From Hyaloperonospora brassicae (taxonomy: Eukaryota; Oomycota; Peronosporomycetes; Peronosporales; Peronosporaceae), in assembly GCA_947650285.1 (NCBI GenBank), contig CANTFL010000921.1, positions 62,001 through 126,000 on the forward strand: a stretch of 64,000 nt of DNA. The letters are read 5' to 3'. Position numbers and translations under genes: made by a program. Below are positions 5,883-37,362 of this stretch, piece by piece; the first letter of the stretch is position 1, and each line of letters opens with the position of its first letter. The notes beneath the pieces were generated by a model that searched no databases, was not told the origin of the DNA, and saw nothing but the letters and a program-made list of their open reading frames with translations.

Positions 5883-6272
5883 TGTGACGGGGCACACCCT
5901 TGCGTGAACTTAACGCAAGGGTTTCGGTGCCCCGACAGACGTACACGTGGCAAGCGAGGAAGCGTAGGTAGGGTAAAAGCAGAACTGTTATATTAATATA
6001 ATTAAGTCTTTAACTACTGTCTCTCTGTTTGACTTAACTTAATTATGCTAATATAACTGAGTGTATGGTGACGTCTCGTCACCACTCATTGCGCGCGTCT
6101 TGCGGCGATTGGTGGGTTGATATCATCAAGATATCAACCAATGAACAGACTCTTTGGTCGACCCTTCAATATCACCACTTTGGTGATATTGTTTAAAGAA
6201 TATTCAACTTCATATTCTTTATTGTCACTTTCCCTAATGTGACAATTCCATGTAACGGGCTGCCCCGTTACA
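5883..6272 (-). repeat. Copy A 3' LTR
   Basis: TGTGACGGGG ... CCCGTTACA, 390 bp. It contains the family's inverted-repeat series (for example arms ATTGTCAC/GTGACAAT around 6223-6248). Confidence 0.85.
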
Positions 6273-6371
6273 TCACCCCCTTAACTGATAGTCACCGTGT
6301 GACTATCGAAAATATGGAGGCCACCCGTTGGCCACCATTGGGACAGGGAGCACTTGTTGGGTCCGTTCCAT

Positions 6372-6378
6372 TCACTTT
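6372..6378 (+). promoter_or_regulatory. Inr-like motif upstream of the copy A antisense gene
   Basis: TCACTTT fits the oomycete initiator consensus (YCAYTYY) and lies about 30 bases before the ATG at 6402. The same position in copy B (22327-22333, minus) and copy C (TCATTCC, 30163-30169) also fits. The flanking promoter element is not perfect here, so the promoter role is inferred. Confidence 0.5.
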
Positions 6379-6401
6379 CCGCTTAACCTTGCATAGTTAA
6401 C

Positions 6402-7874: not shown

Positions 7875-10800
7875 GTTCCAAAGTATCTTATCTGCGCGAC
7901 CAGACGGATCGTCTGGAGCGCGAATGCCAGAACTTGATTGATGTTCTTGAACGTGGGGGCTATCTTCATCGGAAGAAGAAGGCTCGTACTGACAGTACGA
8001 CCTAAGCCTCCCCACGTAAAACGTAGGATGCGTGCGCATCCTACGTGGCAATTCGAGTGTGTATGCATTGCCCTTGCGATGCAACACTCGAAATGGCCCA
8101 ATGTATTTCGGCAGTAGTTTACTACTGCCGACACTAGTGACTGCATGTCCAGGTAGGTTTACCGTTGACAGTAGTACTAGGTCATTCACTTTAAATGAAA
8201 GAACATTTGCTCTTCCATTCTTGTCTGCGTTCCGTTTCTGACGGTCCACCGCATTTGCGATGGAGTCCTGAACGAAACGGACTACCGCCTCTCGAGTCAG
8301 CAGGAAGTTCTCTGCTGACTAAATGTTTCGTCTTTCATTGCGCTTCGTGCGCACTACTAAGAGGTTGCTCTCTTCTTCAGCGAGGTTGTCTTCTTCCTCG
8401 CTGGCATAATCGTTGACGATGCTGAATATACCAGCACCGTCATCATCATCCGAGTCAATAATAGCGATGACGCTATTATTGAGGTGATCTTCTTCATCGA
8501 TGTCGACCTGATCGACATCGGCATCATACGTGACGACGTTAGCGTCGACACGTGATGAGCAAGAGCCAGAACGGTTTTTGCTCGAGCGAGTTCCCCCCCT
8601 TAACTCAGAGTCACTCTGTATAAGGGAGGGAATACGTGGATGGCGTACGCCATTCACGTAGAACGGTGTATGCGTTGTGGACGCATGCACGGAGTTGTTG
8701 ATGGCGAATTACACCATTGGTAGGAATTGGCTCCAACTGGGAAACGAGTGAACATATCCTCGAAGAATCTCTTCGAGGACACGGTTCGCACGTTCCGTCT
8801 GACCATCTGTTTCAGGATGGCCAGAGGTTGACATTTTAAACTTGTTCCCAATGTGCGTAACACGGATTGCCAAAACGCAGCCGTGTACCGAGGGTCACGG
8901 TCGGATTCGAGTTCACGGGGTAAACCGTGGAGTCGAAACACAGTGTCGATGAAGCCACGCGAACAGCCGTGGGCGTTGATCGATTCTGGGACTGCAGCAA
9001 GATGGACCATCTTGCTGAACCGGTCAACAAACACAAGAATGCCATTATTCTTGTGAGCTTCTTCGGGAAACCCGAAAACAAAGTCCATGGACACGGACTC
9101 CCAACACTGTGCCGGGACCGGCAGAGGTTGTAACGGTGCACGGGATGAAGGACTAGACTTCACCCGTTGACAGACCTCGCAAGAACGAATGTACTTGCGG
9201 ACAAACTGATACTGTCGGGGACAGTAAAAGTCATGACTGACCGTGATGTAAGTCTTTTTTCGGCCACGATGCCCTCCAGACAGTGTATCGTGACACTTAT
9301 ACATGATGCGTAATCGAAATTTATCATGATCGGGAACGACGACACGAGGCGTGTCGTCGGCAACAGCTGTATAGTACAGCAGGCATTTGCGAGTAGTGTA
9401 CCCATCCGAAGAGGAACGATACAGGGCCGGCAAATCCGACAAGGATTTCCCGGATGGTTTCACAAGATGACCCATCAAACGGAGGAGATTCGTGTCTCCT
9501 GCGTATGCCTTCCGCACGTTGTCGAGTAAAGGCGACGACGGCACACTGATGCACAGTGTCGCAAAAGTGGGCAAGGCCTCACTGTTGACGCGGGTCGTTA
9601 ACTCGAAGTCGGGCCGGCGCGAAAGCACATCAGAGACGACGTTTAGTCGTCCTAGTTTATACTCCACGGAGAAGTTGTACTCCGCGAAGAAAGACAGCCA
9701 CCTCGCCATCCTCTGCGAGAGGTTTGGGCTGTTTACAGCCGTGCGTAGCGACGCATGGTCCGTATAGACAACAAATGGTCTATCTTCCAAGAGATAGACG
9801 CAAAACTTAGCCAGTGCGTACTTCATGGCAAGGAGTTCCTTGTCATGCACTGGATAATTGCGTTCAGCTGGTTGCAGCTGACAGGATTGATGACAGACGA
9901 CGCGCTCTGCGCCGCCTGAGTCGTATTGCATCAACGCACAGCCGATCGCAAAAGCGCTGGCGTCACAGACCACATGAAATGGTCTGTCCTAGTCGGCAAT
10001 CGCCAACATGTGCAATTGCATCAATCTTTGCTTGATGCCTTCAAAGGAGCGCTGGCAGTCAGCGCTCCATGCCCATTTCATATTTTTCTTTAGCAAACAA
10101 GAAAGATGAACAGTCATCTCGGCGTAGTTGCGCGAGTACTTGTGCAAGTACGCCGCTAGTCCAAGAAACTTCCTTAGACCCTTGACATCGACTAGCACTG
10201 GCCAGTCGGTGATCGCCTTGATCTTTTCGGGATCAGGGCGTACGCCGTGTTTCCCCACGATGCACCCAAGAAGTGGTATTTCGCTAGCCGCGAATATACA
10301 CTTCTTGAGGTTGGCGTACAACTTATACTTGCGCATAAGTTGAAGAACCTGACGAACGTGAGTTCTGTGAACTTCAACGTCCGTCTTTCCGTCCATAGCC
10401 CGGCTATGGACGAACACATCGTCGAAGTAACTCGGTGCAAAGTCTCGCACCGGTCTCAACAGATTTGTTACACATCTGTTGAATGTTGCAGGGGCATTAC
10501 TCAGCCCCTGTGGCATCACTAGCCACTCCCACAGCATCCCGCTGGGGGTACTCACTGCCGTGAACGGGACGTCCCGTTCACGCATCAGGATCTGATAGAA
10601 TCCATCCATCAGATCCATGGACGAAAAGATGGTACTCTTTGACATACCATCTATGATTACGTCCTTCCTCGGTATCGGCGTCTGAGCCGGTACCGTTGCA
10701 GCATTCAATTTGTTGAATGCGTGCACTATCCGCCACCCTCCTGTGGCCTTTCGCACACAGAAGGTCGGAGAGCTGTGAGGGGATGTTGATTCCCTCACAT

Positions 10801-12216
10801 GGCCCGCTGCTAAGCGATCGGCAAAGAACTTGTCGATCGCTATCACTTGTTCACGAGGCAGTGGCCACTGCTTCATGACACAGTACTTCGAGCCCGGTTT
10901 GAGCTCGATCTCGTGTCGAGTGCCTTTGTCCTTAGGTTACTCGCAAGGTACGGATTCAGGAAACACATCCCTGAATTCGATCAAATCCTTATACAAAGGA
11001 TTTGCCTGAAGTAACTCCCAGGATTGGGACGCGTATCGCTCAATCGGAGTCTTATCATCAAGGACACTTTCGTCCATCGATGAGCTGCTGAGAACCCGTT
11101 CGTTCTCAGCAAATACTGTTGCCGACCGAATATCGGCCACATACTCATCCTCCGTGACAAGTATTCAGATCTGCTTGACTTTGCCACTACGCAGATCACG
11201 CAAGAACCGTTTCGGTTCTAGCGTTGGCAATTGAGTTATCTCCGAAGTTAACTTTGGAGGCACAATCAGATCAATGGCATAAGCGCCTACGCTTGATCCG
11301 TCATTAACCAAGACGTTCAACGTCTCGGTTTCTTCCTGGAAACTTCGTTTCACAAATTGCTGAAGGCCTAATCCTTCAGCAAGCGACTCTTGAGGAATTA
11401 CTTCCTCAAGTACGTGGGGACTTATTCCCTCGACGTCTTCCGACTGTGGCTGTGGAACCACAGTCAGGCACCGATCCTCTACGGTCGACTCTCCAGTCGA
11501 CCTAGGATTTTCATGTTGCCCCTTGGGGGCAACAGGTTTCTTTCTTCTAAGATGCTGCCCGCTAGGCATGCATCCATGTCCCGGTCCACTCTACTTATTC
11601 GAGTGGTGGACCTTCGGCGCAGCCTGTACATCTGTACAGCCGCCGGGAGCTTGCTCCACAGTGTAGTGATCAACTACACTGTGATCTTGTGTAGTCGTGC
11701 TAACGACCGTACCGCAAGTGAGGCCATCGCACTCACTCGCAGTACATACACACGCTTGTGGACGCTCCATGGCGTTCATCAGATGGCCAGCTGATGAACA
11801 AGCGGCAGGCATCTTCACGGATCGATGCTACCAGCTCACCCCTGGCTCTTAACTTCTGAGATAAGGTAATTTCAAGATGACATCAACCTTGTGTCCAGAT
11901 CCAGTAGGACGAAGTCATCATCGTACTGTTCACCCTCTAACGTGTAGTGGATTCCTACTACACGTTTCTCAACGGTTATCGATGCGCCTGTTGCAAGGCG
12001 CACCGTCATCCTTGTGAGGGGAATGTCGCGCTCAACGAACTTGAGCCTACGACCCTCTAGTGTCGAATGACGAACAAAGTTGTTCGACGCCCCACAGTCT
12101 ACTAGGGCACGAAGCGACATATCATTTGTCGCTTCCAACTTCAAGGTGATGAGCGAAACGTCATCACCAGGTGCAGAGACACACAATGATTGTGTATCTG
12201 GAGCAACTTTCGTCAA
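7378..12216 (-). pseudogene. Copy A pol: protease-RT-RNase H-integrase-chromodomain, broken
   Basis: Minus-strand pieces follow the copy B protein in order: protease (VDCGASNNF, 11872-12216), linker (11165-11569), RT with YFDD (9989-10876), RNase H and integrase (8654-9973), acidic linker (8319-8690), GPF-type integrase tail (7560-8249) and chromodomain (7378-7881, FLVERIL ... SWEP). Each boundary is a frameshift or stop. At 8590-8610 the reading frame passes straight through a TTAAGGGGGGG tract where copy B is shifted. In life the polyprotein would have carried out reverse transcription and chromatin-targeted integration. Confidence 0.9.
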
Positions 12217-12266
12217 GAGATTTGCAAATTCTCTTGAGGTTGCTGGATCAGTAGGGCGCTCCGCTC

Positions 12267-13420
12267 CTACTGACCCCGACCATTTTTTGATGGTCCGTCT
12301 CGCTGTTGCGGTTTCGCAACAGCGCTGGACCCACGCCCATTGCCATTTCTGGCAAATGGTCGTCCATTTCGCTCAGTATTGTTTGGTACTGGGCGTGGAG
12401 CACTACACTCGTATGCGTAGTGCCCTAACTTCTGACAGCGATTGCACCTCTGCAATCGCTTGTTGTTCGAAGAGCGAGGTCTCTCGCTCTCAACATAACA
12501 GAGGTCCATTGGTTCTGGACCTCCGATCTCTTTTCGTCTCGGTGGACGGTAAGAGTTTGATCTTGCATGGGCCTGTCTCATGCTAACGTCTTTCTGTTCC
12601 GCGGCTGATATCGCCTCTTCAAGCGTATTCAGCTCAAGGTGGAAATGGTGGCTCCTGACGGGCCCTTCTGCGAGCCTTTGCATGAACAGCGTAATCAACG
12701 TGTGTTCATGGACTGGGTTAGCAGTTATACTACTCGCGAGGAGTCGTATATGTTGTGCGTAAGCGTGCACATCACGCTTACCCTGCTTGAGTTTCAAGAG
12801 CTCTGAACGAGCCCTGAACTCAGCACGTGGCGGCTCAAACGTTTGTCTGAGCCGGGACTTGAAGTCATCTAGCGACCTCAACACATTTGGGTCGCTACTC
12901 TCGAGCCCCAGGGACCAAGTTTTGACACGCCCTGCCAAGTGGGTTTGAGCAAATGTGAGTTTCATTTGCTCATCTTTGACGCGACGAGCCCTTTAGGCTC
13001 TGTCGAGTTCGACAAACCATAGTAACAGGGAGTCCTCCGAGACTCCACTGTACTTGAAGATGTCAACTTTCATGACTTCGGGACGACGCGCATGCGCCGT
13101 CCCGCCCACAGCAGCATGGAATTGCTGCTGTCTCAACAGCTCCGTCTGTTGAGCACCGATTTCTCTCAACTGCTCGGCCTGTTGAGAGCCTTGCTGGTGA
13201 AGCAAGGCTACTTTCTCCCTCTCGAGAGCAAGTTCATTGTGAATGAACTTGGCGATAGCGGCATGTTGTTGTTCTCTGTCTAGAGACTCCAACATGGTGC
13301 TAATGGCGAGTTTGCCTACGGTAGAACTCATTCGTTCTACCGCACCCCATTGATGTCACTAAAATGGGTAAACCCTTCACGCGTGGCGTGAAAGGTCTCT
13401 TCATCATCCAACATGTTCAT
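12267..13420 (-). pseudogene. Copy A gag, frameshifted
   Basis: ATG at 13420 (MNMLDDEE). A single-base loss around 13350 shifts the frame to a stop; the ORF resumes at 13331-12993 and 12965-12267. It ends in the zinc knuckle CNRCQKLGHYAYEC (CX2CX4HX4C). The A AAA AAT slippery site and downstream stem are preserved on the minus strand near 12245-12290. Confidence 0.85.
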
Positions 13421-13464
13421 GTGGAATGTTGTGGTCCTTGGAAGGACTACAAAGTGCTACCAGG

Positions 13465-13856
13465 TGTGACGGGGAACACCCTTGCGTGAACTTAACGCAA
13501 GGGTTTCGGTGCCCCGACAGACGTACACGTGGCAAGCGAGGAAGCGTAGGTAGGGTAAAAGCAGAACTGTTATATTAATATAATTAAGTCTTTAACTACT
13601 GTCCCTCTGTTTGACTTAACTTAATTATACTAATCTAACTGAGTGTACGGTGACGTCTCGTCACCACTCATTGCGCGCGTCTTGCGACGATTGGTGGGTT
13701 GATATCATCACGATATCAACCAATGAACAGACTCTTTGGTCGACCCTTCAATATCACCACTTTGGTGATATTGTTTAAAGAATATTCAACTTCATATTCG
13801 TTATTGTCATTGTTTATTTATAGTGACAATTCCATGTAACGGGCTGCCCCGTTACA
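13465..13856 (-). repeat. Copy A 5' LTR
   Basis: 392 bp, TGTGACGGGG ... CCCGTTACA. On the minus strand it is followed by CCTGGTAGCACTTTGTAGTCC-like sequence (13464 downwards), the primer-binding region. It differs from 5883-6272 by a replaced hairpin loop (13811-13822) whose arms are intact. Confidence 0.85.
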
Positions 13857-14846
13857 GACTCTATGTCCACACGCACCATCGCAATTATAGCTCAATTGCT
13901 CCAATTGCACCACAAATCGAGAGCAACACTGAAAGTTTCGGCGTCTCTAGTACCTTCGCAACTCGAGCACCAATGTTCTATTGTCGGCTGCTGCCATCTT
14001 GCATAGGGCGCGTACGAGCCTCGATGATCGTGAATTGCTCCAATGAAGTCGAACACGTGTCATGCGGACCCATGACCATCTTCGCTAGTTTACGTACCAC
14101 CACGGCTTAGGACCATCATGTTGCGAATGGATACCGGCACGTCGATGTTGTTCAGCGGCACCATCGTGCGAGCGTAGAACATGTGCGTAATAAAGACCAC
14201 CAGTTCCAGTACTTCGTAACAATTTACATGCGACACCGCCACAGCATTATCGACACTGGCTGGATCCACTGCCATGACACCCGCAGCATCCGTGCAGATC
14301 ACTACGTAATCAGCACCAAACAAAGCGTCGAAGAGCGCGGCCGTGTGGTCAGCCTCCTCCCGTTCCGTCTTAGCGTCGTCGATCGTCCATTCCTTGCAGA
14401 GCCGATCAAGCCTGTGATCACCTCGACTGACTCGGGGCTTTACCCGAACTCTGCTGTAGCAGCTTCGAGTTGGACCCGTCCTATCGGACGTTCGCACAAA
14501 TGGCTTTCGCGCGTCTCGTCCGTCCGAACGTAGCCACTCACGTGCGTCCACTCAGATCGGATAGGGTAGTACCCTATCTACGCCAAGCATCTGGCTATCT
14601 CCGCAGCCGTCCGCCCTAGTGCTCCACCCGACAGCTTCGCGTCCGTAGCCACTCGCGCGTCCAACGAGCGGCGCTGCACCAGAGTCGACGAGCCGACGCG
14701 CATGCCTCCATGTCACCTGCTGACTCGACCAGCAGCGCGATCAGTGTGTCGGGCGCAAAGCTAACTGTACGCAATGCTAAATGTACCTTTGCGTGCCACT
14801 TGTCGATGCCATTTTAAGCGCTCGAAGTGTCGCCAGTGGCTGAAAA
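13857..14846. other. Sequence between copies A and B; holds the aspartate-kinase-like relic
   Basis: Not part of either element. Apart from the relic at 14090-14770 (minus) no gene was seen. 14833-14846 is the left half of the palindrome into which copy B inserted. Confidence 0.5.
14090..14770 (-). pseudogene. Aspartate kinase-like relic
   Basis: The minus frame 14090-14551 reads ... TAALFDALFGADYVVICTD, AGVMAVDPASVDNA, SHVNCYEVLELVVF, then VPLNNIDVPVSIRNM with GGT. This follows the aspartokinase pattern (TDxxGVxxxDPR-xV-x-A, sYxEmlELaxxGaxvlh, vPlxvrnxf-GT). A further piece at about 14715-14760 (PDTLIALLVESAGDMEA) matches the earlier part of such kinases. The nucleotide-binding N-terminus and a clean ACT region are not visible and stops intervene. 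Aspartokinase starts the lysine/threonine/methionine pathway; this copy looks dead. Assignment is by pattern only. Confidence 0.45.
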
Positions 14847-15234
14847 TGTAACGGGGCAGCCCGTTACATGATATTGTCACTTAAGGAAAGTGACAATAAA
14901 GAATATAAGATGGATATTCTTTAAACAATATCACCAAAGTGGTGATATTGAAGGGTCGACCAAAGGGTCTGTTCATTGGTTGATATCGTGATGATATCAA
15001 CCCACCAATCGCCGCAAGACGCGCGCAATGAGTGGTGACGAGACGTCACCATACATGCAGTTATATTAGTATAATTGAATTAAGTCAAACGAAGAGACAG
15101 TAGTTTAAAGACTTAATTTATTAATATAACAGTTCTACTTTTACCCTACCTACGCTTCCTCGCTTGCCACGTGTACGTCTGTCGGGGCACCCAAATCCCT
15201 TGCGTTAAGTTACGCAAGGGTGTGCCCCGTTACA
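14847..15234 (+). repeat. Copy B 5' LTR
   Basis: Begins TGTAACGGG, ends CCCCGTTACA. It is built from consecutive inverted repeats, for example 14847-14868, 14978-15002 and 15197-15220. Confidence 0.95.
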
Positions 15235-15237
15235 CCT

Positions 15238-15250
15238 GGTAGCACTTTGT
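15238..15250 (+). promoter_or_regulatory. Primer-binding site
   Basis: TGGTAGCACTTTG starts three bases after the 5' LTR. TGG pairs with a tRNA CCA end. The same sequence adjoins the 5' LTR of copies A and C and survives as CCTGGTA beside the LTR at 5437-5875. The priming tRNA was not identified. Confidence 0.7.
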
Positions 15251-15278
15251 AGTCCTTCCAAGGACCACATCATCCAAC

Positions 15279-16433
15279 ATGAACATGTTGGATGAAGAAG
15301 ACACCTTTCACGCCACGCGTGAAGGGTTTACCCATTTGAGTGACATCGAATGGGGTGCGGTAGAACGAATGAGTTCTACCGTAGGCGAACTCGTCGTCAG
15401 CACCATGTTGGAGTCTCTAGACAGAGACCAACAACATGCTGCTATCGCCAAGTTCATTCACAATGAACTTGCTCTCGAGAGGGAGAAAGTAGCCTTGCTT
15501 CACCAGCAAGGCTCTCAACAGGCCGAGCAGTTGAGAGAACTCGGTGCTCAACAGACGGAGCTGTTGAGACAGCAGCAATTCCATGCTGCTGTGGGCGGGA
15601 CGGCGCATGCGCGTCGTCCCGAAGTGATGAAGGTCGACATCTCCAAGTACAGTGGAGTCCCGGAGGACTCCCTGTTACTATGGTTTGTCGAACTCGACAG
15701 AGCCCTAAGGGCTCGTCGCGTCGAAGATGAGCAAATGAAACTCACATTTGCTCAGACCCACTTGGCAGGGCGTGCCAAAACTTGGTCCCTGGGACTCGAG
15801 AGTAGCGACCCAAATGTGTTTAGGTCGCTAGATGACTTCAAGTCCCGGCTCAGACAAACGTTTGAGCCGCCACGTGCTGAGTTCAGGGCTCGTTCAGAGC
15901 TCCTGAAACTCAAGCAGGGTAAGCGTGATGTGCACGCTTACGCACAACATATACGACTCCTTGCGAGTAGTATAACTGCAAACCCAGTTCATGAACACAC
16001 GTTGATTACGGTGTTCATGCAAGGGCTCGCAGAAGGGCCCGTCAGGAACCACCTGTTCCGCCTTGAGCTGAATACGCTTGAAGAAGCGATATCAGCCGCG
16101 GAACAGGAAGACTTTAGCATGAGACAGGCTCATGCTAGCTCAAACTCTTACCGTCCACCGAGACGACAAGAGATCGGAGGTCCAGAACCAATGGACCTCT
16201 GTTATGTTGAGAGCGAGCGACCTCGCTCTACAAACAACAAGCGATTGCAGAGGTGCAATCGCTGTCAGAAGTTAGGGCACTACGCATACGAGTGTAGTGC
16301 TCCGCGCCCAGTACCAAACAGTACTGAGCGAAATGGACGACCATTCGCCAGAAAGGGCAATGGGCGTGGGTCCAGCGCTGTTGCGAAGCCGCAACAGCGA
16401 GACGGGCCATCAAAAAATGGTCGGGGTCAGTAG
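15279..16433 (+). CDS. gag: Gag (capsid/nucleocapsid), copy B
   Basis: 384 residues, intact. Residues 45-110 are Gln/Glu-rich and predicted coiled coil. About 120-280 is the retrotransposon gag capsid fold (LLLWFVELDRAL, GRAKTWSLGL, FKSRLRQTF, LKQGKRDVHAYAQHI). A zinc knuckle CNRCQKLGHYAYEC (CX2CX4HX4C) lies near residue 330, followed by a basic Gly/Arg tail. Gag assembles the particle and the knuckle binds element RNA. The ATG at 15279 is the first after the primer-binding site. The frame ends at TAG 16431, just after a slippery heptamer, so most product should be Gag alone and a minority Gag-Pol. Confidence 0.93.
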   Translation: MNMLDEEDTFHATREGFTHLSDIEWGAVERMSSTVGELVVSTMLESLDRDQQHAAIAKFIHNELALEREKVALLHQQGSQQAEQLRELGAQQTELLRQQQFHAAVGGTAHARRPEVMKVDISKYSGVPEDSLLLWFVELDRALRARRVEDEQMKLTFAQTHLAGRAKTWSLGLESSDPNVFRSLDDFKSRLRQTFEPPRAEFRARSELLKLKQGKRDVHAYAQHIRLLASSITANPVHEHTLITVFMQGLAEGPVRNHLFRLELNTLEEAISAAEQEDFSMRQAHASSNSYRPPRRQEIGGPEPMDLCYVESERPRSTNNKRLQRCNRCQKLGHYAYECSAPRPVPNSTERNGRPFARKGNGRGSSAVAKPQQRDGPSKNGRGQ

Positions 16434-16452
16434 GGGCGGAGCGCCCTACTGA
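16412..16452 (+). promoter_or_regulatory. -1 programmed ribosomal frameshift signal
   Basis: Slippery heptamer A AAA AAT at 16412-16418 in the gag frame (codons TCA AAA AAT), an 8-base spacer, then a 9-bp perfect stem TCAGTAGGG/CCCTACTGA (16427-16435 with 16444-16452, 8-base loop). A one-base slip back leads into the pol frame with no stop before the pol ATG at 16487. The heptamer and stem recur in copy A (one mismatch) and in the decayed copy C (unchanged). Confidence 0.85.
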
Positions 16453-16486
16453 TCCAGCAACCTCAAGAGAATTTGCAAACCTCTTG

Positions 16487-19400
16487 ATGAAAGTTGCTCC
16501 AGATACACAATCATTGTGTGTCTCTGCACCTGGTGATGATGTTTCGCTCATCACCTTGAAGTTGGAAGCGACAAATGACTTGTCGCTTCGTGCCCTAGTA
16601 GACTGTGGGGCGTCGAACAACTTTGTTCGTCACTCGACACTAGAGGGTCGTAGGCTCAAGTTCGTTGAGCGCGACATTCCCCTCACAAGGATGACGGTGC
16701 GCCTTGCAACAGGCGCATCGATAACCGTTGAGAAACGTGTAGTAGGAATCCACTACACGTTAGAGGGCGAGCAGTACGATGATGATTTCATCGTACTAGA
16801 TCTGGATGACAAATTTGATGTCATCCTGGGATTACCTTGGCTCAGAAAATACGAGCCAAGGGTGAGCTGGCAGCATCGATCCGTGAAGATGCCTGCTGCT
16901 TGTTCATCAGATGGCCATCTGATGAACATCTTGGAGCGTCCACAAGCGTGTGGATGTTCTGCGAGTGAGTGCGATGGCCTCACTTGCGGTACGGTCGTTA
17001 GCACGACTGCACAAGGTCACAGTGTAGTTGATCACTACACTGTGGAGCAAGCTCCCGGCGGCTGTACAGAAGTACAGGCTGCGCCGAAGGTCCACCACTC
17101 GAATAAGTCGAGTGGACCGGGACATGGATGCATGCCTAGCGGGCAGCATCTTAGAAGAAAGAAATCTGTTGCCCCCAAGGGGCAACATGAAAATCCTAGG
17201 TCGACTGGAGAGTCGACCGTAGAGGATCGGTTCCTGACTGTGGTTGCACAGCCACAGTCGGAAGACGTCGAGGGAATAAGTCCCCACGTACTTGAGGAAG
17301 GAGTTCCTCAAGAGTTGCTTGCTGAGGGATCAGGCCCTCAGCAACCTGTGGAAGCAAGATCCCAGGAAGAAACCGAGACGTTGAACGTCTTGGTTAATGA
17401 CGGATCAAGCGTAGGCGCTTATACGCTTGATCTGATTGTGCCTCCGAAGTTGACTTCGGAGATAACTCAGTTGCCAACGCTAGAACCGAAACGGTTCTTG
17501 CGTGATCTGCGTAGTGGCAAAGTCAAGCAGATCTGCGTACTCGTCACAGAGGACGAGTATGTGACCGACATTCGGTCGGCAACAGTATTTGCTGAGAACG
17601 AACGGGTTCTCAGCAGCTCATCGATGGACGAAAGTGTCCTCGATGAGAAGACTCGGATTGAGCGATACGCGTCCCAATCCTGGGAGTCACTTCAGGCAAA
17701 TCCTTTGTATAAGGATTTGATCGAATTCAGGGATGTGTTCCCTGAATCCGTACCTTGCGAGTTGCCTAAGGACAAAGGCACTCGACACGAGATCGAGCTC
17801 AAACCGGGCTCGAAATACTGTGTCATGAAGCAGTGGCCACTGCCTCGTGAACAAGTGATAGCGATCGACAAGTTCTTTGCCGATCGCTTAGCAGCGGGCC
17901 ATGTGAGGGAATCAACATCCCCTCACAGCTCTCCGACCTTCTGTGTGCGAAAGGCCACAGGAGGGTGGCGGATAGTGCACGCATTCAACAAGTTGAATGC
18001 TGCAACGGTACCGGCTCAGACGCCGATACCGAGGAAGGACGTAATCATAGATGGTATGTCAAAGAGTACCATCTTTTCGTCCATGGATCTGATGGATGGA
18101 TTCTATCAGATCCTGATGCGTGAACGGGACGTCCCGTTCACAGCAGTGAGTACCCCCAGCGGGATGCTGTGGGAGTGGCTAGTGATGCCACAGGGGCTGA
18201 GTAATGCCCCTGCAACATTCAACAGATGTGTAACAAATCTGTTGAGACCGGTGCGAGACTTCGCACCGAGTTACTTCGACGATGTGTTCGTCCATAGCCG
18301 GGCTATGGACGGGAAGACGGACGTTGAAGTTCACAGAACTCACGTTCGTCAGGTTCTTCAACTTATGCGCAAGCATAAGTTGTACGCCAACCTCAAGAAG
18401 TGTATATTCGCGGCTAGCGAAATACCACTTCTTGGGTGCATCGTGGGGAAACACGGCGTACGCCCTGATCCCGAAAAGATCAAGGCGATCACCGACTGGC
18501 CAGTGCCAGTCGATGTCAAGGGACTTCGAAAGTTCCTTGGTCTTGCGGCGTACTTGCACAAGTACTCGCGCAACTACGCCGAGATGACGGTACATCTTTC
18601 TTGCTTGCTCAAGAAAAATGTCAAGTGGTCATGGAACGCTGAGTGCCAGCGTTCCTTTGAAGGTATCAAGCAAAGCTTGATGCAATCGCCGATCTTGGCG
18701 ATTGCAGATCAGGACAGACCATTTCATGTGGTCTGTGACGCCAGCGATTTCGCAATCGGCTGTGCGTTAATGCAGTTCGATGCAGATGGCGCGGAGCGCG
18801 TCATCTGTTATCAATCGCGTCAGCTGCAAGCAGCTGAGCGTAATTACCCAGTGCATGACAAGGAACTCCTTGCCATGAAATACGCACTGGCTAAATTTCG
18901 CGTCTATCTCTTGGGAGATAGACCGTTTGTTGTCTACACGGACCATGCGTCATTACGCACGGCCGTAAACAGCCCACACCTCTCGCAAAGAATGGCGAGG
19001 TGGCTGTCTTTCTTCGCGGAGTATAACTTCTCCGTGGAGTATAAACCGGGACGACTCAATGTCGTCGCGGATGCTCTTTCGCGCCGGCCCGATTTCGAGC
19101 CGGACGCGCAATCCAACAGTGAGGACAAGCCCACTGTTGCGACACTGTCAGTCAGTGTCCCGTCGTCAAGTTTACTTGACGACGTACGAAAGGCATACGC
19201 GGAAGATAAGGATCTTCTGCGATTGATGGATCATCTGGTGAATCCATCCAGTAAATCCATGAGGGATTTACCGGCTTTGTACCGATCCTCATCGGATCGG
19301 TATAGTACACGCAACGGATTGCTGTACTATACAGCTGTTGCCGACGACACGCCTCGTGTCGTCGTACCCGCTCATCATGATTTGCGATTGCGCATCATGT

Positions 19401-20347
19401 ATGAGTGTCACGATGCCCCAACAAGCGGCCATCGTGGTAGAGAAAAGACTTACCTCACGGTAAGTCGCGACTTTTACTGGCCCCGCCAGTATCAGTTTGT
19501 TCGCAAGTACATCCGTGCTTGCGAAGTATGTCAACGGGTGAAGCCTAGTCCTTCATCCCGTGCGCCATTGCAGCCTCTGCCTGTTCCGACAGAGTGCTGG
19601 CAGTCCGTTTCAATGGACTTCGTCTTCGGGTTTCCCGAAGACGCTCACAAGAATAATGGTATTCTTGTGTTTGTGGACCGATTCAGCAAGATGGTCCATC
19701 TTGCTGCTGTCCCTGAGTCAATCAAGGCTCAAGGTTGTGCTCGTGTCTTTCTAGACACGGTCTTTAGACTCCACGGGTTACCCCGTGAACTCGTATCCGA
19801 CCGTGACCCTCGGTTCACGGCGGAATTTTGGCAAACCGTGTTCCGTACTCTCGGAACACGATTGAAGATGTCCACTTCTGACCATCCAGAAACAGATGGT
19901 CAGACGGAACGTGCGAACCGTGTCCTCGAAGAGATTCTTCGAGGATATGTCCACTCGTTTCCGAGTTGGAGCGAATTCCTACCCATGGTGGAATTCGCCA
20001 TCAATAATTCGGTGCATGCTTCAACACAGCACACACCGTTTTACGTGAATGGCCTACGCCATCCACGTGTGCCCACCCTTCTAGAGTGTGACTCTTGGAT
20101 AAGGGGGGAGGGACTCGCTCGAGCAAAAACCGTTTTGGCTCTTGCTCATCACGTGTCGACGCAAACGTCGTCACGTATGATGCCGATGTCGATCAAGTCG
20201 ACATCGATGAAGAAGATCATCTCAATAATAGCGAAGACGCTATTATTGATTCGGATGATGATGACGATGCTGGTATATTCAGCATCGCCAACGATTATGC
20301 CAGCGAGGAAGAAGACAACCTCGCTGAAGAAGAGAGCAATCTCTTAG
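16487..20347 (+). CDS. pol: Pol polyprotein, copy B (C-terminus out of frame)
   Basis: Probably made as a Gag-Pol fusion by -1 frameshifting; the ATG at 16487 is simply the first Met. Order with approximate residues from that Met: aspartic protease with VDCGASNNF at about 38; reverse transcriptase about 440-640 with catalytic YFDD at 596; RNase H from about 745 (VVCDAS ... YTDHAS); integrase zinc finger (H-H-C-C ending CEVCQRVK) at about 970-1010; integrase core ([28 protein letters not shown]) at about 1040-1150. Beyond about residue 1205 the frame leaves homology, and the integrase tail and chromodomain continue in the -1 frame from 20095. Copy A is in frame at this point, so this is most likely a recent two-base insertion. 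Confidence 0.92.
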   Translation: MKVAPDTQSLCVSAPGDDVSLITLKLEATNDLSLRALVDCGASNNFVRHSTLEGRRLKFVERDIPLTRMTVRLATGASITVEKRVVGIHYTLEGEQYDDDFIVLDLDDKFDVILGLPWLRKYEPRVSWQHRSVKMPAACSSDGHLMNILERPQACGCSASECDGLTCGTVVSTTAQGHSVVDHYTVEQAPGGCTEVQAAPKVHHSNKSSGPGHGCMPSGQHLRRKKSVAPKGQHENPRSTGESTVEDRFLTVVAQPQSEDVEGISPHVLEEGVPQELLAEGSGPQQPVEARSQEETETLNVLVNDGSSVGAYTLDLIVPPKLTSEITQLPTLEPKRFLRDLRSGKVKQICVLVTEDEYVTDIRSATVFAENERVLSSSSMDESVLDEKTRIERYASQSWESLQANPLYKDLIEFRDVFPESVPCELPKDKGTRHEIELKPGSKYCVMKQWPLPREQVIAIDKFFADRLAAGHVRESTSPHSSPTFCVRKATGGWRIVHAFNKLNAATVPAQTPIPRKDVIIDGMSKSTIFSSMDLMDGFYQILMRERDVPFTAVSTPSGMLWEWLVMPQGLSNAPATFNRCVTNLLRPVRDFAPSYFDDVFVHSRAMDGKTDVEVHRTHVRQVLQLMRKHKLYANLKKCIFAASEIPLLGCIVGKHGVRPDPEKIKAITDWPVPVDVKGLRKFLGLAAYLHKYSRNYAEMTVHLSCLLKKNVKWSWNAECQRSFEGIKQSLMQSPILAIADQDRPFHVVCDASDFAIGCALMQFDADGAERVICYQSRQLQAAERNYPVHDKELLAMKYALAKFRVYLLGDRPFVVYTDHASLRTAVNSPHLSQRMARWLSFFAEYNFSVEYKPGRLNVVADALSRRPDFEPDAQSNSEDKPTVATLSVSVPSSSLLDDVRKAYAEDKDLLRLMDHLVNPSSKSMRDLPALYRSSSDRYSTRNGLLYYTAVADDTPRVVVPAHHDLRLRIMYECHDAPTSGHRGREKTYLTVSRDFYWPRQYQFVRKYIRACEVCQRVKPSPSSRAPLQPLPVPTECWQSVSMDFVFGFPEDAHKNNGILVFVDRFSKMVHLAAVPESIKAQGCARVFLDTVFRLHGLPRELVSDRDPRFTAEFWQTVFRTLGTRLKMSTSDHPETDGQTERANRVLEEILRGYVHSFPSWSEFLPMVEFAINNSVHASTQHTPFYVNGLRHPRVPTLLECDSWIRGEGLARAKTVLALAHHVSTQTSSRMMPMSIKSTSMKKIISIIAKTLLLIRMMMTMLVYSASPTIMPARKKTTSLKKRAIS

Positions 20348-21327
20348 CAGTGCGCACGAAGCGCACTGCTAGACAAAACAAAGAGTCAGCAGAGAACTTC
20401 CTGCTGACTCGAGAAGCGGTAGTCCGTTTCGTTCAGGACTCCATCGCAAATGCGGTGGACCGTCAGAAACGGAACGCAGACAAGAATGGAAGAGCAAATG
20501 TTCTTTCATTTAAGGTTAATGACCTAGTACTACTGTCAACGGTAAACCTACCTGGACATGCAGTCACTAGTGTCGGCAGTAGTAAACTACTGCCGAAATA
20601 CATTGGGCCATTTCGAGTGTTGCATCGCAAGGGCAATGCATACACACTCGAATTGCCACGTAGGATGCGCACGCATCCTACGTTTTACGTGGGGAGGCTT
20701 AGGTCGTACTGTCAGTACGGGCCTTCTTCTTCCGATGAAGATAGCCCCCACGTTCAAGAACATCCATCAAGTTCTTGCGTTCGCGCTCCAGACGATCCGT
20801 CTGGTCGCGCAGATATGATACCTCGGTATTCAACCGAGTTATCTCTCCGCGAGCTGTCGCCAGCTCGCCGAAAAGGGAGCGGACATCCCGCTCGACCTGA
20901 AGCTGCGCCGTGGCATAATCGGCGCGATCCCTCGCCCGATCAGCCTCGTGATCCTTGCGGTTCTTCCGCACGGTGTCGGTCAAAGCGTAGCGTCGGTCGC
21001 GCTCGTGCTTCAAGTCATCGCGCAATTCATCGATTGCGCGATCCATCTCGTAAGGGTCGAGATGGTGGGCCTGGGGTTCTGGAGGAGGTCTTTCCTCCTC
21101 CACCACATCCTTTGGTGGATGCTCACGGTGATCAACGCTTTCTAGTGGAGCGTATCTTGAATCACCGTGACGATTCAGGATCAAGGACGAGCTACCTCGT
21201 CCAGTGGCGGGGGTATCCACCCTCTTGGAACAGCTGGGAGCCCCGCTCTCAGCTGTTAATGGATGTTGAAGGTCTCGTCCACCAGTATGACGAGACCCAT
21301 CCGATGAGTCCTGTGGCCCATCGGTAA
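20095..21327 (+). CDS. Integrase C-terminal domain and chromodomain of copy B, in a separate frame
   Basis: 410-codon open frame with no credible ATG start; it is the continuation of pol in the -1 frame. It contains an acidic linker, then the integrase tail (FKVNDLVLLSTV, KYIGPFRVLHRKGNAYTLELP: the GPY/F module), a Pro/Arg-rich linker and a C-terminal chromodomain (FLVERILNHRDD, YLVQWRGYPPSWNSWEP, about 21136-21300). In chromoviruses this domain steers integration to chromatin with particular histone marks. Bases 20699-21327 also code on the opposite strand. Without frameshifting, copy B's integrase would lack this part. Confidence 0.88.
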   Translation: MDKGGGTRSSKNRFGSCSSRVDANVVTYDADVDQVDIDEEDHLNNSEDAIIDSDDDDDAGIFSIANDYASEEEDNLAEEESNLLAVRTKRTARQNKESAENFLLTREAVVRFVQDSIANAVDRQKRNADKNGRANVLSFKVNDLVLLSTVNLPGHAVTSVGSSKLLPKYIGPFRVLHRKGNAYTLELPRRMRTHPTFYVGRLRSYCQYGPSSSDEDSPHVQEHPSSSCVRAPDDPSGRADMIPRYSTELSLRELSPARRKGSGHPARPEAAPWHNRRDPSPDQPRDPCGSSARCRSKRSVGRARASSHRAIHRLRDPSRKGRDGGPGVLEEVFPPPPHPLVDAHGDQRFLVERILNHRDDSGSRTSYLVQWRGYPPSWNSWEPRSQLLMDVEGLVHQYDETHPMSPVAHR

Positions 21328-22303
21328 ACACGCGCCCTAGGCGCTTGTAGACGGATTGCAAGTTTGCAATCGCGTCACGCATCTCCTCCGAGAGATGTGC
21401 CCTTCCCCAGGGCGAACTTAGGGAGTACACATCCCTATGTGCACGCTGCGAGTTGTCAACACAACTCGCACAAGGGTCTCCCCATGTGAGGCAAGGAATG
21501 CCTGCCTCACTCGATAAACAATGCAACCGGTACCTAGCACCGGTTGGCGTTCGCCGTTCGAACCTGAGGCGTGTTGCCTCAAGTTTCTTGAGCCACCCTT
21601 CTCGTCCAAAATTCTTTACGTTTTGGACGAACGCGTTCCACGCAGCCAAAAGCGATGTTTTGTCACGCTTTTGGTTGCTATTGTACCATCGATGTCTAAG
21701 GAAGACATCGAGATAAAAATCTTCTTCAGCGCGAAAGTTCTTCGCGCTGGGACTCAAGCCGTGAAGCTCGGTTGCATCGAATAAGGGTATTCGATGGTGT
21801 TGGCCTGTCTCGTGAGACAGGCTATTGATGAGTTGTTCGGGCAAACGCCACGGCTTCAACTCATCACGCTTCACAGTGGTACCCTTGTCGGTACCACGGC
21901 TCCCAGATTGACGACGGCTCGCGCCATCGTCAACACGCTCGTGCGAAGACGCACGAGCCGGCGGTGGTGAAGAATAGAACTCACCACCCTGATCATCGTC
22001 ATCACTGCCGAACAGACTGTGATGCGAATCACGAGTCCGTTCGTTCGGCAGTGGCCTTGGCGAATACTGAGGCGTCGCCGGTGAGCGAGACGCCTCTGGA
22101 GCATTGCCCGAGTCAGACACGTCTGACTCGCCAGAGTAGATGACCTCCACATCGGGGTCATCATACGCACGCGGCGTGATACCGCGTGCACCTGCAGCAC
22201 CTGTTGCTGCAGGCGAAGAAGGGGCGGCAGACGACGAAGCGTCTGCCGCAGAGGCTTGCACAGCACCAGGCTGTGTGGGTCTTGAGTCACCTCGCATAGA
22301 CAT
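20699..22303 (-). CDS. Antisense accessory protein of the Ty3/gypsy element, copy B (534 aa)
   Basis: Intact opposite-strand gene at the element's 3' end. Seen in the protein: a Ser/Ala-rich acidic N-terminus (1-130); a conserved globular centre (about 170-330) with FLRHRWYN, AWNAFVQNVKNFGREGW and a cysteine cluster C-x8-C-x6-C-x2-C that could bind zinc; a Pro/His-rich linker; a highly charged coiled coil (about 420-520, ELRDDLKHERDRRYALTD ...); and a basic tail HRKKKAR that could be a nuclear signal. An Inr-like TCACTTT sits 24-30 bases before the ATG and the ATG lies in the loop of a 10-bp inverted repeat. The ORF is present in A (490 codons) and as a ruin in C. Retrotransposons with antisense genes are known (for example Grande in maize), but no match was recognised. 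Function is unknown; a regulator or nucleic-acid-binding partner is conceivable. Confidence 0.8.
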   Translation of the reverse strand: MSMRGDSRPTQPGAVQASAADASSSAAPSSPAATGAAGARGITPRAYDDPDVEVIYSGESDVSDSGNAPEASRSPATPQYSPRPLPNERTRDSHHSLFGSDDDDQGGEFYSSPPPARASSHERVDDGASRRQSGSRGTDKGTTVKRDELKPWRLPEQLINSLSHETGQHHRIPLFDATELHGLSPSAKNFRAEEDFYLDVFLRHRWYNSNQKRDKTSLLAAWNAFVQNVKNFGREGWLKKLEATRLRFERRTPTGARYRLHCLSSEAGIPCLTWGDPCASCVDNSQRAHRDVYSLSSPWGRAHLSEEMRDAIANLQSVYKRLGRVFTDGPQDSSDGSRHTGGRDLQHPLTAESGAPSCSKRVDTPATGRGSSSLILNRHGDSRYAPLESVDHREHPPKDVVEEERPPPEPQAHHLDPYEMDRAIDELRDDLKHERDRRYALTDTVRKNRKDHEADRARDRADYATAQLQVERDVRSLFGELATARGEITRLNTEVSYLRDQTDRLERERKNLMDVLERGGYLHRKKKARTDSTT

Positions 22304-22318
22304 GTTAGCTATGCGAGG
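22290..22318 (-). repeat. Hairpin around the antisense start codon
   Basis: Perfect 10-bp arms CCTCGCATAG (22290-22299) and CTATGCGAGG (22309-22318) enclose a 9-base loop holding the CAT/ATG at 22301-22303. Copy A has the same structure with one base changed to a G-T pair (about 6388-6416). Confidence 0.75.
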
Positions 22319-22326
22319 TCAAGCGG

Positions 22327-22333
22327 AAAGTGA
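22327..22333 (-). promoter_or_regulatory. Inr-like motif of the antisense gene, copy B
   Basis: Minus-strand TCACTTT within CCACTCACTTTCCGC, 24-30 bases upstream of the ATG at 22303. It matches the oomycete initiator consensus. Copies A and C have a matching motif at the same place. Confidence 0.5.
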
Positions 22334-22419
22334 GTGGAACGGACCAAACAAGTACTCCCTGTCCCAATGGTGGCCAACGGGTGGCCTCCATATTTCGATA
22401 GTCATACGGTGACTATCAG

Positions 22420-22433
22420 TTAAGGGGGGGTGA
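22420..22433 (+). promoter_or_regulatory. Polypurine tract
   Basis: TTAAGGGGGGGTGA directly precedes the 3' LTR, as expected for the plus-strand primer. It is preceded by an inverted repeat GATAGTCA/TGACTATC (22397-22417). Confidence 0.75.
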
Positions 22434-22821
22434 TGTAACGGGGCAGCCCGTTACATGATATTGTCACTTAAGGAAAGTGACAATAAAGAATATAAGATGG
22501 ATATTCTTTAAACAATATCACCAAAGTGGTGATATTGAAGGGTCGACCAAAGGGTCTGTTCATTGGTTGATATCGTGATGATATCAACCCACCAATCGCC
22601 GCAAGACGCGCGCAATGAGTGGTGACGAGACGTCACCATACATGCAGTTATATTAGTATAATTGAATTAAGTCAAACGAAGAGACAGTAGTTTAAAGACT
22701 TAATTTATTAATATAACAGTTCTACTTTTACCCTACCTACGCTTCCTCGCTCGCCACGTGTACGTCCGTCGGGGCACCCAAATCCCTTGCGTTAAGTTAC
22801 GCAAGGGTGTGCCCCGTTACA
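22434..22821 (+). repeat. Copy B 3' LTR
   Basis: 388 bp, differing from the 5' LTR at two positions (both T to C, in the block CGCTCGCC...CGTCCGTC near 22751-22770). Followed by target duplication GAAAA. Confidence 0.95.
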
Positions 22822-22885
22822 GAAAAGGCCACTGGTCCTAGAGCACACAAAGTCGGTGTCTCTCGCTTACGATGCAGCAGAAGCT

Positions 22886-28492: not shown

Positions 28493-29583
28493 AAATAGTA
28501 ACAATGGACATGCTTGACACCACATATATGTTACGATGTTGCTCTCGTACATATCGCGTTCTATGTAAGATATGCATGGGCTAATTTTCTCGCCTCTTTA
28601 CGAAGTTAAATCCGTCCGATCTACGCAACAGTAGTATTACGATCGTGTCCTATATATTAAAAGCAACTTCTTAGAGATCTCCGCAGGCTGAATTTTCAAA
28701 TGTAGCACGACCAAGTGCAATGGGCTAGATTTATACTGAATGTCACAAACGCATCCACCGTATCATTGCATTCCTATTGCTCCTTGTAGAAGTCGTTGAC
28801 TCGATATACCAATTCACATCTGCATTTGCAGCTACGCTGAGTTGTAGCCACGTGGTTGCAACAATTGGCGTTCATAGAAAGGTCATACAATTACCTCTTC
28901 ATGTCTAAAGCGTCTAGAAATCGCCTCTTGGCGTGTAGCCCGTAGCTGTAATCCACTTCGATTAGCCTGATTTTTGCTTGCTTATCTCTACCGATAATGT
29001 GGATGCCTTAAAACGCTTTATATCACGGTGACAATGACTCAGAAAACAAACAAGTGCAACAATGATTGGTGAATAGCTGCGGGTCTGTAACGAGCTAGTC
29101 CGATACATCCACATGGTGACAGACCGACAGACTGAAGCAGCTCACGCACACACACGGAAATAAACGTTCATGTATGTAATAGATTTGTTACTCATGAGTT
29201 TCTTATACGTGCAGCGATTTCGTAGACATGTCACTCCATACCTATTTTTCTGCTGTACACTGAGCTTTTAGTGCGAATTGGTCTTTTTAAATTTAGCCCT
29301 TAGACAAGTCGTATAAACACAGATGATGACGCAGTACTCTAGGTATAGGCAGTGCTAATAGAGCTATCGACGTGCTTTCTGTCGGCCATTCTTAAGGGTG
29401 TGCGAAGGTAGCAAAGGCGTCGCACTTATTCACGACGATGCAGTGCATGAGAATAGCTCAGTTGCAACGTATTATATACATGTAATGGGGTACCGGAAAA
29501 TACGTACCGGACTACCAGGACGGAGATAATTCTCACTGATAACACCAAAGGTCAGTCATCCTGCTACCTCTGAGCACTACGCA
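28493..29583. other. No gene recognised
   Basis: AT-rich stretch without long frames, RNA genes or clear repeats. Confidence 0.4.
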
Positions 29584-30047
29584 TGTTACGGGTCACGCTC
29601 TTACCAGATAATTGGTAAGACCTTGCGTTGATTGAACATAGGGCTGCGTACTACCGACGTCACGTACACGTATCTTGAGGAAGCGCAAGGAAATAAACAG
29701 AGCTAAGGAAGCTCTGTTTAAGGAATAAGTAGAACAGTATTCAAGATATTTAAGTTTCTTTAAAAAAATCATCTTTGTCGTCATCTAGCTATATTGAACT
29801 ACAATCTTCTATGTGGGTTTCTTGCCCGCCACCATTTCATGCGTCCAGCAGCGATTGGTGTTTAATTTGGTTGATGTAGCGTCTACATCAACCAATGAGT
29901 AGAGCACCCACGAATATTACCCTCGGTGGTAATATTCTGCCAACATTATCCCTTTTCGAGTAGTATTGATGAATATTATTTGAATGAATAATATTCAAAA
30001 TTTGATGCATTCGTATCAATTTTATGTAAAGGGACCACCCCGTTACA
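29584..30047 (-). repeat. Copy C 3' LTR
   Basis: TGTTACGGG ... CCCGTTACA, 464 bp. Inverted repeats with changed arms: GGTTGATGTAG/CTACATCAACC (29869-29893) and GAATATTACC/GGTAATATTC (29912-29937). Confidence 0.75.
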
Positions 30048-30162
30048 TCACACACACCACTCAACCATCAGTAACTGTAGTGAGCAATTGAATTGACAGG
30101 AAACATAGTGACCACCGTCTTGGTGCTCTGGGGAAAGGGAGCACTTGTTGGTTTTGTCTTTC

Positions 30163-30169
30163 TCATTCC
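30163..30169 (+). promoter_or_regulatory. Inr-like motif of the antisense gene, copy C
   Basis: TCATTCC in TTTCTCATTCCAACC, at the position equivalent to the motifs in A and B. It is a perfect initiator match, although the gene behind it is ruined. Confidence 0.45.
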
Positions 30170-30181
30170 AACCTTCAACGC

Positions 30182-31950: not shown

Positions 31951-32019
31951 TCCCCCCAACATCAACGTATTATGCGCGCGCTTCCTACGTGGCGGCTTGA
32001 TCGTGTATGTGTTGCCTTG

Positions 32020-37312: not shown

Positions 37313-37362
37313 GTCGGATGAGGTGGTTGTGGTCGCTGGACGGACTACAAAGTGCTACCAGG

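What the first reader, a model, noticed from the sequence alone, without database searches (positions are those of the whole stretch)
14847..22821. A retrotransposon whose whole sequence is tiled with short perfect inverted repeats
Reading copy B, nearly every 20-40 bases holds a perfect inverted repeat with arms of 6-13 bp and a short loop, one after another through gag, pol, the antisense gene and the LTRs. Examples: 16734-16761 (10-bp arms AACGTGTAGT/ACTACACGTT), 16902-16927 (13-bp arms, no loop), 17018-17044 (11-bp arms), 16427-16452 (9-bp), 22290-22318 (10-bp). Copy A shows the same at 6475-7470, for example GTGATGAGTA/TACTCATCAC near 6712. Host genes read in the same way (such as the KH gene) do not show it. 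Because inverted repeats fold on both strands, sense and antisense transcripts and single-stranded cDNA would all be chains of small hairpins. Either codon choice is under element-wide selection for structure (packaging, escape from small-RNA silencing, protection of cDNA), or a mutational process such as template switching in reverse transcription keeps perfecting palindromes. I know of no described element built this way.
Basis: seen in the sequence. Interest (0 to 1): 0.93.

Follow-up and report, generated by a model that had tools for sequence, protein, structure and literature searches.

The report
Retrotransposon tiled with selected small hairpins
A jumping gene in a mould-like microbe has tuned almost its whole sequence so that either strand folds into a long chain of tiny hairpins, and natural selection appears to keep them; this may shield it from the cell's defences.

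Summary
Copy B (14847-22821) is a complete, young Ty3/Gypsy element, probably of a peronosporalean oomycete. Perfect short inverted repeats cover about 40% of it, in LTR, gag, pol and a conserved antisense gene. Against synonymous-codon shuffles they are 5- to 7-fold in excess at arms of 6 or more and 30- to 45-fold at 8 or more; mirror and direct repeats are not enriched; three of four host genes are at chance.

Stems peak at 8-10 bp. Two related families (about 50% protein identity) have hairpins at other positions and of other lengths (5 bp; 5-9 bp). Six other groups of RT loci lack them.

Synonymous mutations private to young copies hit stems as often as other sites; changes shared by lineages avoid stems (OR 0.36). 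So selection keeps the hairpins; no palindrome-making mutation bias is seen. Both strands are equally folded (MFED 48% and 47%; highest value quoted for vertebrate RNA viruses 23%), and in B G.U is not favoured over A.C.

Best reading: a strand-symmetric relative of viral genome-scale ordered RNA structure. Shielding from RNA silencing is inferred, untested. My searches found no paper describing it.

The parts
14847..22821 (+). Complete Ty3/Gypsy element (copy B), hairpin-tiled
   Evidence: LTRs, 5-bp target duplication, gag, pol, chromodomain
14842..14846 (+). Target-site duplication GAAAA (repeated at 22822-22826)
14847..15234 (+). 5' LTR; hairpins in its first ~205 bases, none in 15052-15196
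15237..15250 (+). Probable primer-binding site (TGGTAGCAC...), judged by position next to the LTR
   Evidence: sequence read; tRNA not identified
15279..16433 (+). gag: Retrotrans_gag, Ty3_capsid, zinc knuckle (the last below its Pfam cut-off)
16484..20347 (+). pol: protease, RT, RNase H, integrase
20092..21327 (+). Second frame with SH3 (Tf2-1-like) and chromodomain, end of integrase
20699..22303 (-). Antisense gene (aORF, 534 aa), conserved, no Pfam family over its cut-off; model of low confidence: helical part about 180-321 and coiled coil 417-518
   Evidence: 81 matches in the genome, copy B's included, 69 of them without a stop inside
22422..22433 (+). Probable polypurine tract (AAGGGGGGGTGA)
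   Evidence: sequence read
22434..22821 (+). 3' LTR, 2 differences from the 5' LTR
16901..16928 (.). Example hairpin: 14-bp arms, no loop
17018..17044 (.). Example hairpin: 11-bp arms, perfect in 15 of 17 copies compared (copy A among them)
17319..17344 (.). Hairpin with a compensated pair (G-C to A-T) and both one-sided intermediates among copies
17403..17432 (.). Hairpin gained by three changes in one arm relative to copies A and C
5883..13856 (-). Copy A: full-length, 92.4% identical, decayed, hairpin-tiled
29560..37900 (-). Copy C: old relative (internal part 31127-37439, 78.5% identical), hairpins largely decayed; LTR hairpins of its own; outer limits approximate

Best explanation
Copy B belongs to a clade of oomycete Ty3/Gypsy elements whose sequence is kept by selection in a state in which single strands of either polarity fold at once into a chain of small, purely local, perfectly paired hairpins. 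Selection acts on how much and how folded the strand is, not on particular hairpins: positions turn over between families while stem length is set per family (about 8-10 bp in B, 5 bp in the L042 family). Shown here: excess, strand symmetry, conservation of stems, turnover of positions. Inferred: the benefit. The likeliest one is protection of the element's RNA, both the genomic sense RNA and the antisense RNA made for the antisense gene or by the host's RNA-dependent polymerase, from RNA silencing: strands locked into short hairpins anneal slowly to each other and offer few open target sites, while stems of at most about one helical turn are too short to be diced.
For: Excess over codon- and dinucleotide-preserving controls, only for inverted repeats. 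Both strands equally folded: MFED +47.7% / -47.1%, 21 fragments each; MFE z -19 sense, -29 antisense for the first 3 kb of pol, 12 shuffles. Excess strongest at loops of 2-12, small at 16-30 (10 vs 3.7) and gone beyond 30. Extension probability peaks at 0.83 for 7 to 8 bp and is back at the random level, 0.27, for 10 to 11. Selection: synonymous changes shared by lineages 23 per 291 stem sites, 20 per 75 loop, 127 per 594 between hairpins (OR 0.36, p 3e-6); private ones in young copies 9, 7 and 13 per the same sites (OR 1.03); same with two other stem definitions (OR 0.41 and 0.31; private 0.93 and 1.11). Hairpin score change: 102 private mutations of young copies -0.62 vs random -0.69; 162 shared ones -0.03 vs -0.71 (z 5.6). 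Repeated in nine L042-type sequences, stems of 4+: shared synonymous 7 per 125 stem vs 16 per 57 loop and 31 per 152 between (OR 0.25, p 3e-4), private OR 1.04. Positions not shared between B and the sister families. Antisense gene: 81 matches, 69 without a stop. Oomycete small RNAs of 21 and 25/26 nt map to both strands along two abundant Gypsy-type elements (PMC3522703, passages).
Against: No small-RNA, transcript or probing data were available, so the benefit is unproven. The 25-nt unit itself is hardly the target: 44% of 25-nt windows of B fold to -4 kcal or lower vs 29% in shuffles. The L042 family stops at 5 bp and seems to avoid a sixth pair (L042 7 of 66 extended, p 0.004; its relative L043 10 of 68, p 0.05), which a simple 'as folded as possible' shield does not predict. 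In the L042 family one-sided stem changes lean to G.U (13 G.T vs 4 A.C at arms 5+, 18 vs 13 at 4+), which would suit sense-RNA selection. L045 shows the trait weakly (7 vs 0.8 stems of 8+, MFED 4.5%). Pairwise tests of stem conservation were mixed for L042/L043/L044 and weak for L045/L046. Copies are related, so shared changes are not independent. Correction of stems during reverse transcription could also spare stems in lineages and is not strictly excluded.
Confidence: 0.4

Rival explanations
1. Packaging code: each family's Gag recognises hairpins of its own stem length dispersed along the genomic RNA, as dispersed packaging signals do in some RNA viruses.
For: Family-specific stem lengths; an end preference in L042 (closing pair with 5' pyrimidine in 85 of 112 stems vs 53% in chance hairpins, p 3e-7); trait found in one set of related families only.
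Against: Acts on sense RNA only, so G.U should be tolerated: in B, stems of 8+ with a G.T pair are not commoner than with an A.C pair (pol 32 vs 40, gag 9 vs 5, antisense ORF 12 vs 12), and shared broken pairs are 18 G.T vs 15 A.C. No repeated loop sequence seen in B.
Confidence: 0.2
2. Single-stranded cDNA is the selected molecule: hairpins protect, compact or pace minus-strand cDNA in the particle.
For: No G.T over A.C preference in B, perfect Watson-Crick stems, equal folding of both strands, LTRs included.
Against: No direct evidence; hairpins in the template should slow reverse transcription (general knowledge); a stop at 10 bp or 5 bp is unexplained.
Confidence: 0.2
3. A mutational process, fold-back copying during reverse transcription, keeps making and perfecting palindromes.
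For: One hairpin gained by three changes within four bases of one arm (17423-17426); gains have 5 transitions to 11 transversions vs 30 to 17 elsewhere (p 0.04).
Against: Private mutations in young copies make or break hairpins as random placement does (gain 7, loss 33 of 102). Differences from copy C are not gathered in one arm (15 of 49 stems, 15.2 expected). In the part that was shown (its output was cut), clusters among young copies did not build palindromes, with one 2-base exception in L018 and L031 that makes a 5-bp stem.
Confidence: 0.1
4. Chance, composition, codon bias or assembly artefact.
For: One host gene is slightly above its shuffles.
Against: Controls; nearly the same number of hairpins in each of 30 loci (copy B among them) on 27 contigs and different hairpins in sister families.
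Confidence: 0.01

Closest known systems
[quoted passage not shown]
   Same: Hundreds of consecutive stem-loops through coding sequence, positions and pairings poorly conserved between relatives, paired sites less diverse (PMC7642675, abstract and passages); duplexes said to be mostly over 8 and never exceeding 11 bp, citing the authors' then unpublished analysis (PMC3950689, passages). B: stems 8-10, turnover, lower diversity at stems.
   Different: An LTR retrotransposon, not a virus; MFED 48% against 15% (SARS-CoV-2) and 23.4% (highest quoted there; shuffling methods differ somewhat); antisense strand equally folded; no G.U preference in B; stem length differs by family (5 bp in L042).
Dispersed packaging signals of RNA viruses (PMC6281560, search listing only)
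   Same: Many stem-loops spread along a genomic RNA.
   Different: No shared loop sequence seen in B; strand-symmetric.
Ty3/Gypsy retrotransposons with a chromodomain and an antisense extra gene (plant examples recalled, no call)
   Same: Domain order gag-PR-RT-RH-IN-chromodomain, extra gene between pol and 3' LTR on the other strand.
   Different: Hairpin tiling; I recall no report of it.
Quasipalindrome correction by template switching (recalled; PMC7999016 listed, not read)
   Same: Would make perfect inverted repeats with short loops.
   Different: No mutation bias towards palindromes among private mutations.

Membership tests
Ty3/Gypsy LTR retrotransposon | LTRs with TG...CA ends, 5-bp target duplication, gag and PR-RT-RH-IN order | tested here: met
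Chromodomain-bearing Gypsy (chromovirus-like) | Chromodomain at the integrase C-terminus | tested here: met
   PF00385 E 1e-13, PF24626 E 2e-13 in 20092-21327; a tree placing it among chromoviruses was not made
GORS | Folding energy well below dinucleotide-shuffled controls throughout the genome | tested here: met
   21 of 21 350-nt fragments positive, 25.6-65.1%
GORS | Pairings not conserved in position between relatives | tested here: met
   B stems in L046, L045, L042 pair 136/347, 127/329, 139/372; synonymous shuffles give 123, 120, 129, so the observed values are only 1.1-1.9 sd higher. The closer pair L045/L046 (69% identity) does share positions: 132/239 vs 106 and 102/150 vs 79
GORS | Paired sites less variable | tested here: met
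   mixed in the pairwise tests
GORS | Duplexes restricted to about 8-11 bp | tested here: inconclusive
   B met (peak 8-10); L042 family not (5 bp)
GORS | Positive-strand RNA virus genome | tested here: not met
   LTR retrotransposon
Sense-RNA structure under selection | G.U pairs accepted more than A.C mismatches | tested here: not met
   B; in the L042 family the trend is towards G.U
Dispersed packaging signals | Common loop or stem motif bound by the capsid protein | tested here: inconclusive
   No repeated loop sequence in B; closing-pair preference in L042 only; binding not testable
Small-RNA evasion | Fewer or less active small RNAs than unstructured elements | not testable with these tools
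   no small-RNA data

The most novel reading that the evidence does not exclude
A clade of retrotransposons writes a length-coded hairpin armour into both strands of its whole genome: stem length is a family trait set by selection (about 9 bp, 5 bp, 5-9 bp), positions are free, and the armour keeps sense and antisense RNA from annealing, so that an element with genes on both strands escapes RNA silencing.
Probability: 0.3. Interest if true: 0.95.

Novelty: new variant of a known kind. Interest (0 to 1): 0.86.

Why it matters
Its folding excess is about twice the highest value quoted in the GORS paper I saw, and it is a retrotransposon with at least 40 near-identical copies, so recent mutations can be compared with lineage changes. 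That makes an old question (does genome-wide folding serve defence evasion, packaging or nothing?) testable outside vertebrate viruses, with natural families that differ in stem length and with hairpin-free elements in the same genome as controls. It also shows that coding sequence can carry a second, strand-symmetric code.

Tried and rejected
Chance, composition and codon usage: rejected by shuffles. Fixed span as the constrained quantity: B's span is tighter than independent arm and loop would give, but for L042 this vanished once loops under 3 were treated as open, so I do not claim it. Small RNAs folding on themselves as the selected unit: weak. Regular spacing: none. Conserved, covarying structure: not between B and the sister families; a few compensated pairs within the clade, against copy C (9 of 21 pairs changed on both sides) and in the LTRs. 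Outer-G preference in L046: present at arms 6+ (23 of 34) but not at 5+ (25 of 58), so not claimed. Gains exceeding losses on the branch to the B clade (16 vs 2) is biased by how stems were chosen and is not used. Lower density where frames overlap on both strands (12.7 stems per kb in 20699-21327 vs 21.5 in the antisense-only part): not used, since the one-frame stretch 20348-20698 is lower still, 8.5. Known RNA families: none at gathering score in the window. Relatives' DNA in viral, prokaryote and plasmid collections: none useful. Fold of the antisense protein: poor model (mean pLDDT 55), best PDB match E 0.42. RT groups were told apart by match length and hits, not by a tree. Copies in each family are related, so counts of shared changes are not fully independent.
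Full report
What it is. Copy B is a complete Ty3/Gypsy element: LTRs 14847-15234 and 22434-22821 with two differences, target duplication GAAAA, gag, protease-RT-RNase H-integrase, SH3 and chromodomain, and a 534-aa gene on the opposite strand. The genome (100.6 Mb, 898 contigs, unnamed) is taken to be that of a peronosporalean oomycete because the nearest named pol relatives are from Peronospora, Phytophthora and Globisporangium (89% over 501 residues to a Peronospora effusa protein). At least 40 nearly identical RT regions exist (the tool scored 40 of 2323 candidates). The antisense gene matched at 81 places (81 of 3737 candidates scored), 69 of them without a stop inside; 11 relatives came up outside, nine without a name and two called uncharacterized.

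The observation. Only inverted repeats are enriched in B. The first stem starts within one base of the LTR start; the right flank to 24500 has no stem of 8 or more, and the 1-kb stretch between copies A and B has one. In pol the codon phase in which third positions face each other is the rarest (11 stems vs 28 and 28; gag 4 vs 8 and 9; antisense ORF 6 vs 10 and 14), and stems of pol lie in less conserved residues (0.677 in 215 residues vs 0.751 in 615, p 2e-4) without making the protein deviate more at conserved ones (14/124 vs 44/417; 119 homologues). This is what tuning through tolerated codon changes would give.

How folded. In 350-nt fragments with dinucleotide shuffles the element's MFED is 47.7% on the + strand and 47.1% on the - strand (21 fragments each); copy A 36%, old copy C 20%, L042 14 and 18%, L046 12 and 13%, L045 4.5%; three host genes -4.0 to 3.6%; five other RT loci 1.7 to 8.1%. 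Published values, read as passages: SARS-CoV-2 15%, highest in vertebrate RNA viruses 23.4% (PMC7642675). Shuffling methods differ somewhat, so the comparison is rough.

Who has it. Of nine groups of RT loci examined, the B family, L042-L044 and L045/L046 (46-51% identical to each other over pol, L045 to L046 69%) show it; L001/L002, L003, L004-L008, L048, L049 and L050 do not. Stem lengths differ: with loops of 3-15, B (pol, gag, antisense ORF) exceeds chance at 8, 9 and 10 bp (36 vs 1.5, 29 vs 0.5, 24 vs 0.3) and nearly stops at 11 (2) and 12+ (2); L042 exceeds at 4 and 5 (133 vs 92, 67 vs 26) and hardly at 6 (8 vs 6.3) or 7 (4 vs 1.4). The chance that a stem is extended by one more pair falls to the random level at 10 to 11 in B (10 of 37) and below it at 5 to 6 in L042 (7 of 66).

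Selection or mutation. Thirty near-identical copies supply new mutations, and other subfamily copies supply changes that have passed through transposition. Over 4.6 kb, private synonymous mutations of young copies fall on stems and non-stems alike; shared changes avoid stems. Private synonymous changes of single copies of other subfamilies, which mix lineage and new changes, avoid stems less strongly (OR 0.53, p 0.025), and the changes shared among young copies only are too few to judge (OR 0.46, p 0.53). Scored by effect on hairpins, 102 private mutations of young copies behave like random ones (7 gains, 33 losses); 162 shared by other subfamilies do not (16 gains, 19 losses); the two intermediate classes lie between (271 private in other subfamilies: 8 gains, 61 losses, -0.33 vs -0.72; 36 shared among young only: 2 gains, 8 losses, -0.19 vs -0.70). 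In nine L042-type sequences the same contrast appears for 4-5-bp stems, while pairwise tests of L042, L043 and L044 gave anything from OR 0 to 0.99 at synonymous sites, and L045/L046 0.70-0.86, not significant. Private non-synonymous changes of young B copies are somewhat rarer in stems (10 per 947 sites vs 41 per 2233, OR 0.58, p 0.12). Against selection alone stand one three-base one-arm gain and the transversion-rich gains. Correction of stems at reverse transcription is not excluded, but then compensated pairs should be common, and broken pairs far outnumber them (48 to 5 among shared).

Which strand. In B neither the make-up of imperfect stems (13 G.T, 12 A.C) nor broken pairs (18 G.T, 15 A.C shared; 28 and 32 private) favour G.U. 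So the selected thing is DNA-like or involves both RNA strands. In the L042 family a lean to G.U exists at arms 5+ (13 vs 4), so this may differ by family.

Turnover. B's stems are paired in the sister families only 1.1-1.9 sd above synonymous shuffles, and pairs changed on both sides are Watson-Crick near chance; L045 and L046, closer to each other, share part of their positions. Within the clade, stems persist while loops vary in sequence and, in the LTR, in length. Whole hairpins are present or absent as blocks between the LTRs of copies B and C.

Function. I commit, at 0.4, to protection of both RNA strands from silencing. It fits strand symmetry, the antisense gene, locality, indifference to position and the limit near one helical turn, and oomycete small RNAs are known to cover both strands of two abundant Gypsy-type elements (PMC3522703, passages; Dicer-like and RNA-dependent polymerase background PMC4791657, passages). 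That short stems are not diced and that structured strands anneal slowly is general knowledge, not tested. It does not readily explain the 5-bp limit of L042. Packaging and cDNA protection remain open at about 0.2 each.

Novelty. Of ten paper searches, seven concerned repeats, structure or antisense genes in retrotransposons and none listed a hairpin-tiled retrotransposon; the others served for background. The library is open-access and lacks most subscription journals. The nearest known kind is GORS; I therefore rate it a new variant, extreme and strand-symmetric, in a new kind of element.

Noticed in passing
20699-22303 (-): A conserved antisense gene of unknown function in a Gypsy element, with relatives in Peronospora matthiolae and unnamed records; a conserved core with a Cys-containing stretch and a long coiled coil.
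   Followed up: partly
16632-16637: Copy B differs from the 29 other young copies by four bases in six; copy A also departs there, so recombination between subfamilies is possible.
   Followed up: no
29912-29937 and 29694-29720 (copy C LTR): Whole hairpins present in copy C's LTR are absent as blocks in the LTRs of A and B.
   Followed up: no
20092-20347: pol ends in one frame and the SH3/chromodomain part continues in another; RT loci with a 1339-aa frame recur in the genome, so the frame change may be a family trait (frameshift) rather than damage.
   Followed up: no
L042 (3 kb pol piece): Five-bp stems seem to avoid a sixth pair, and the loop-closing pair has a 5' pyrimidine in 85 of 112 stems of 4+.
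   Followed up: partly
43062-45986: A CAF1A-like host gene has slightly more short inverted repeats than its shuffles (16 vs 7.8, highest 15).
   Followed up: no
L049: A different RT group (2225-aa frame) has MFED 8.1% without excess perfect hairpins.
   Followed up: no
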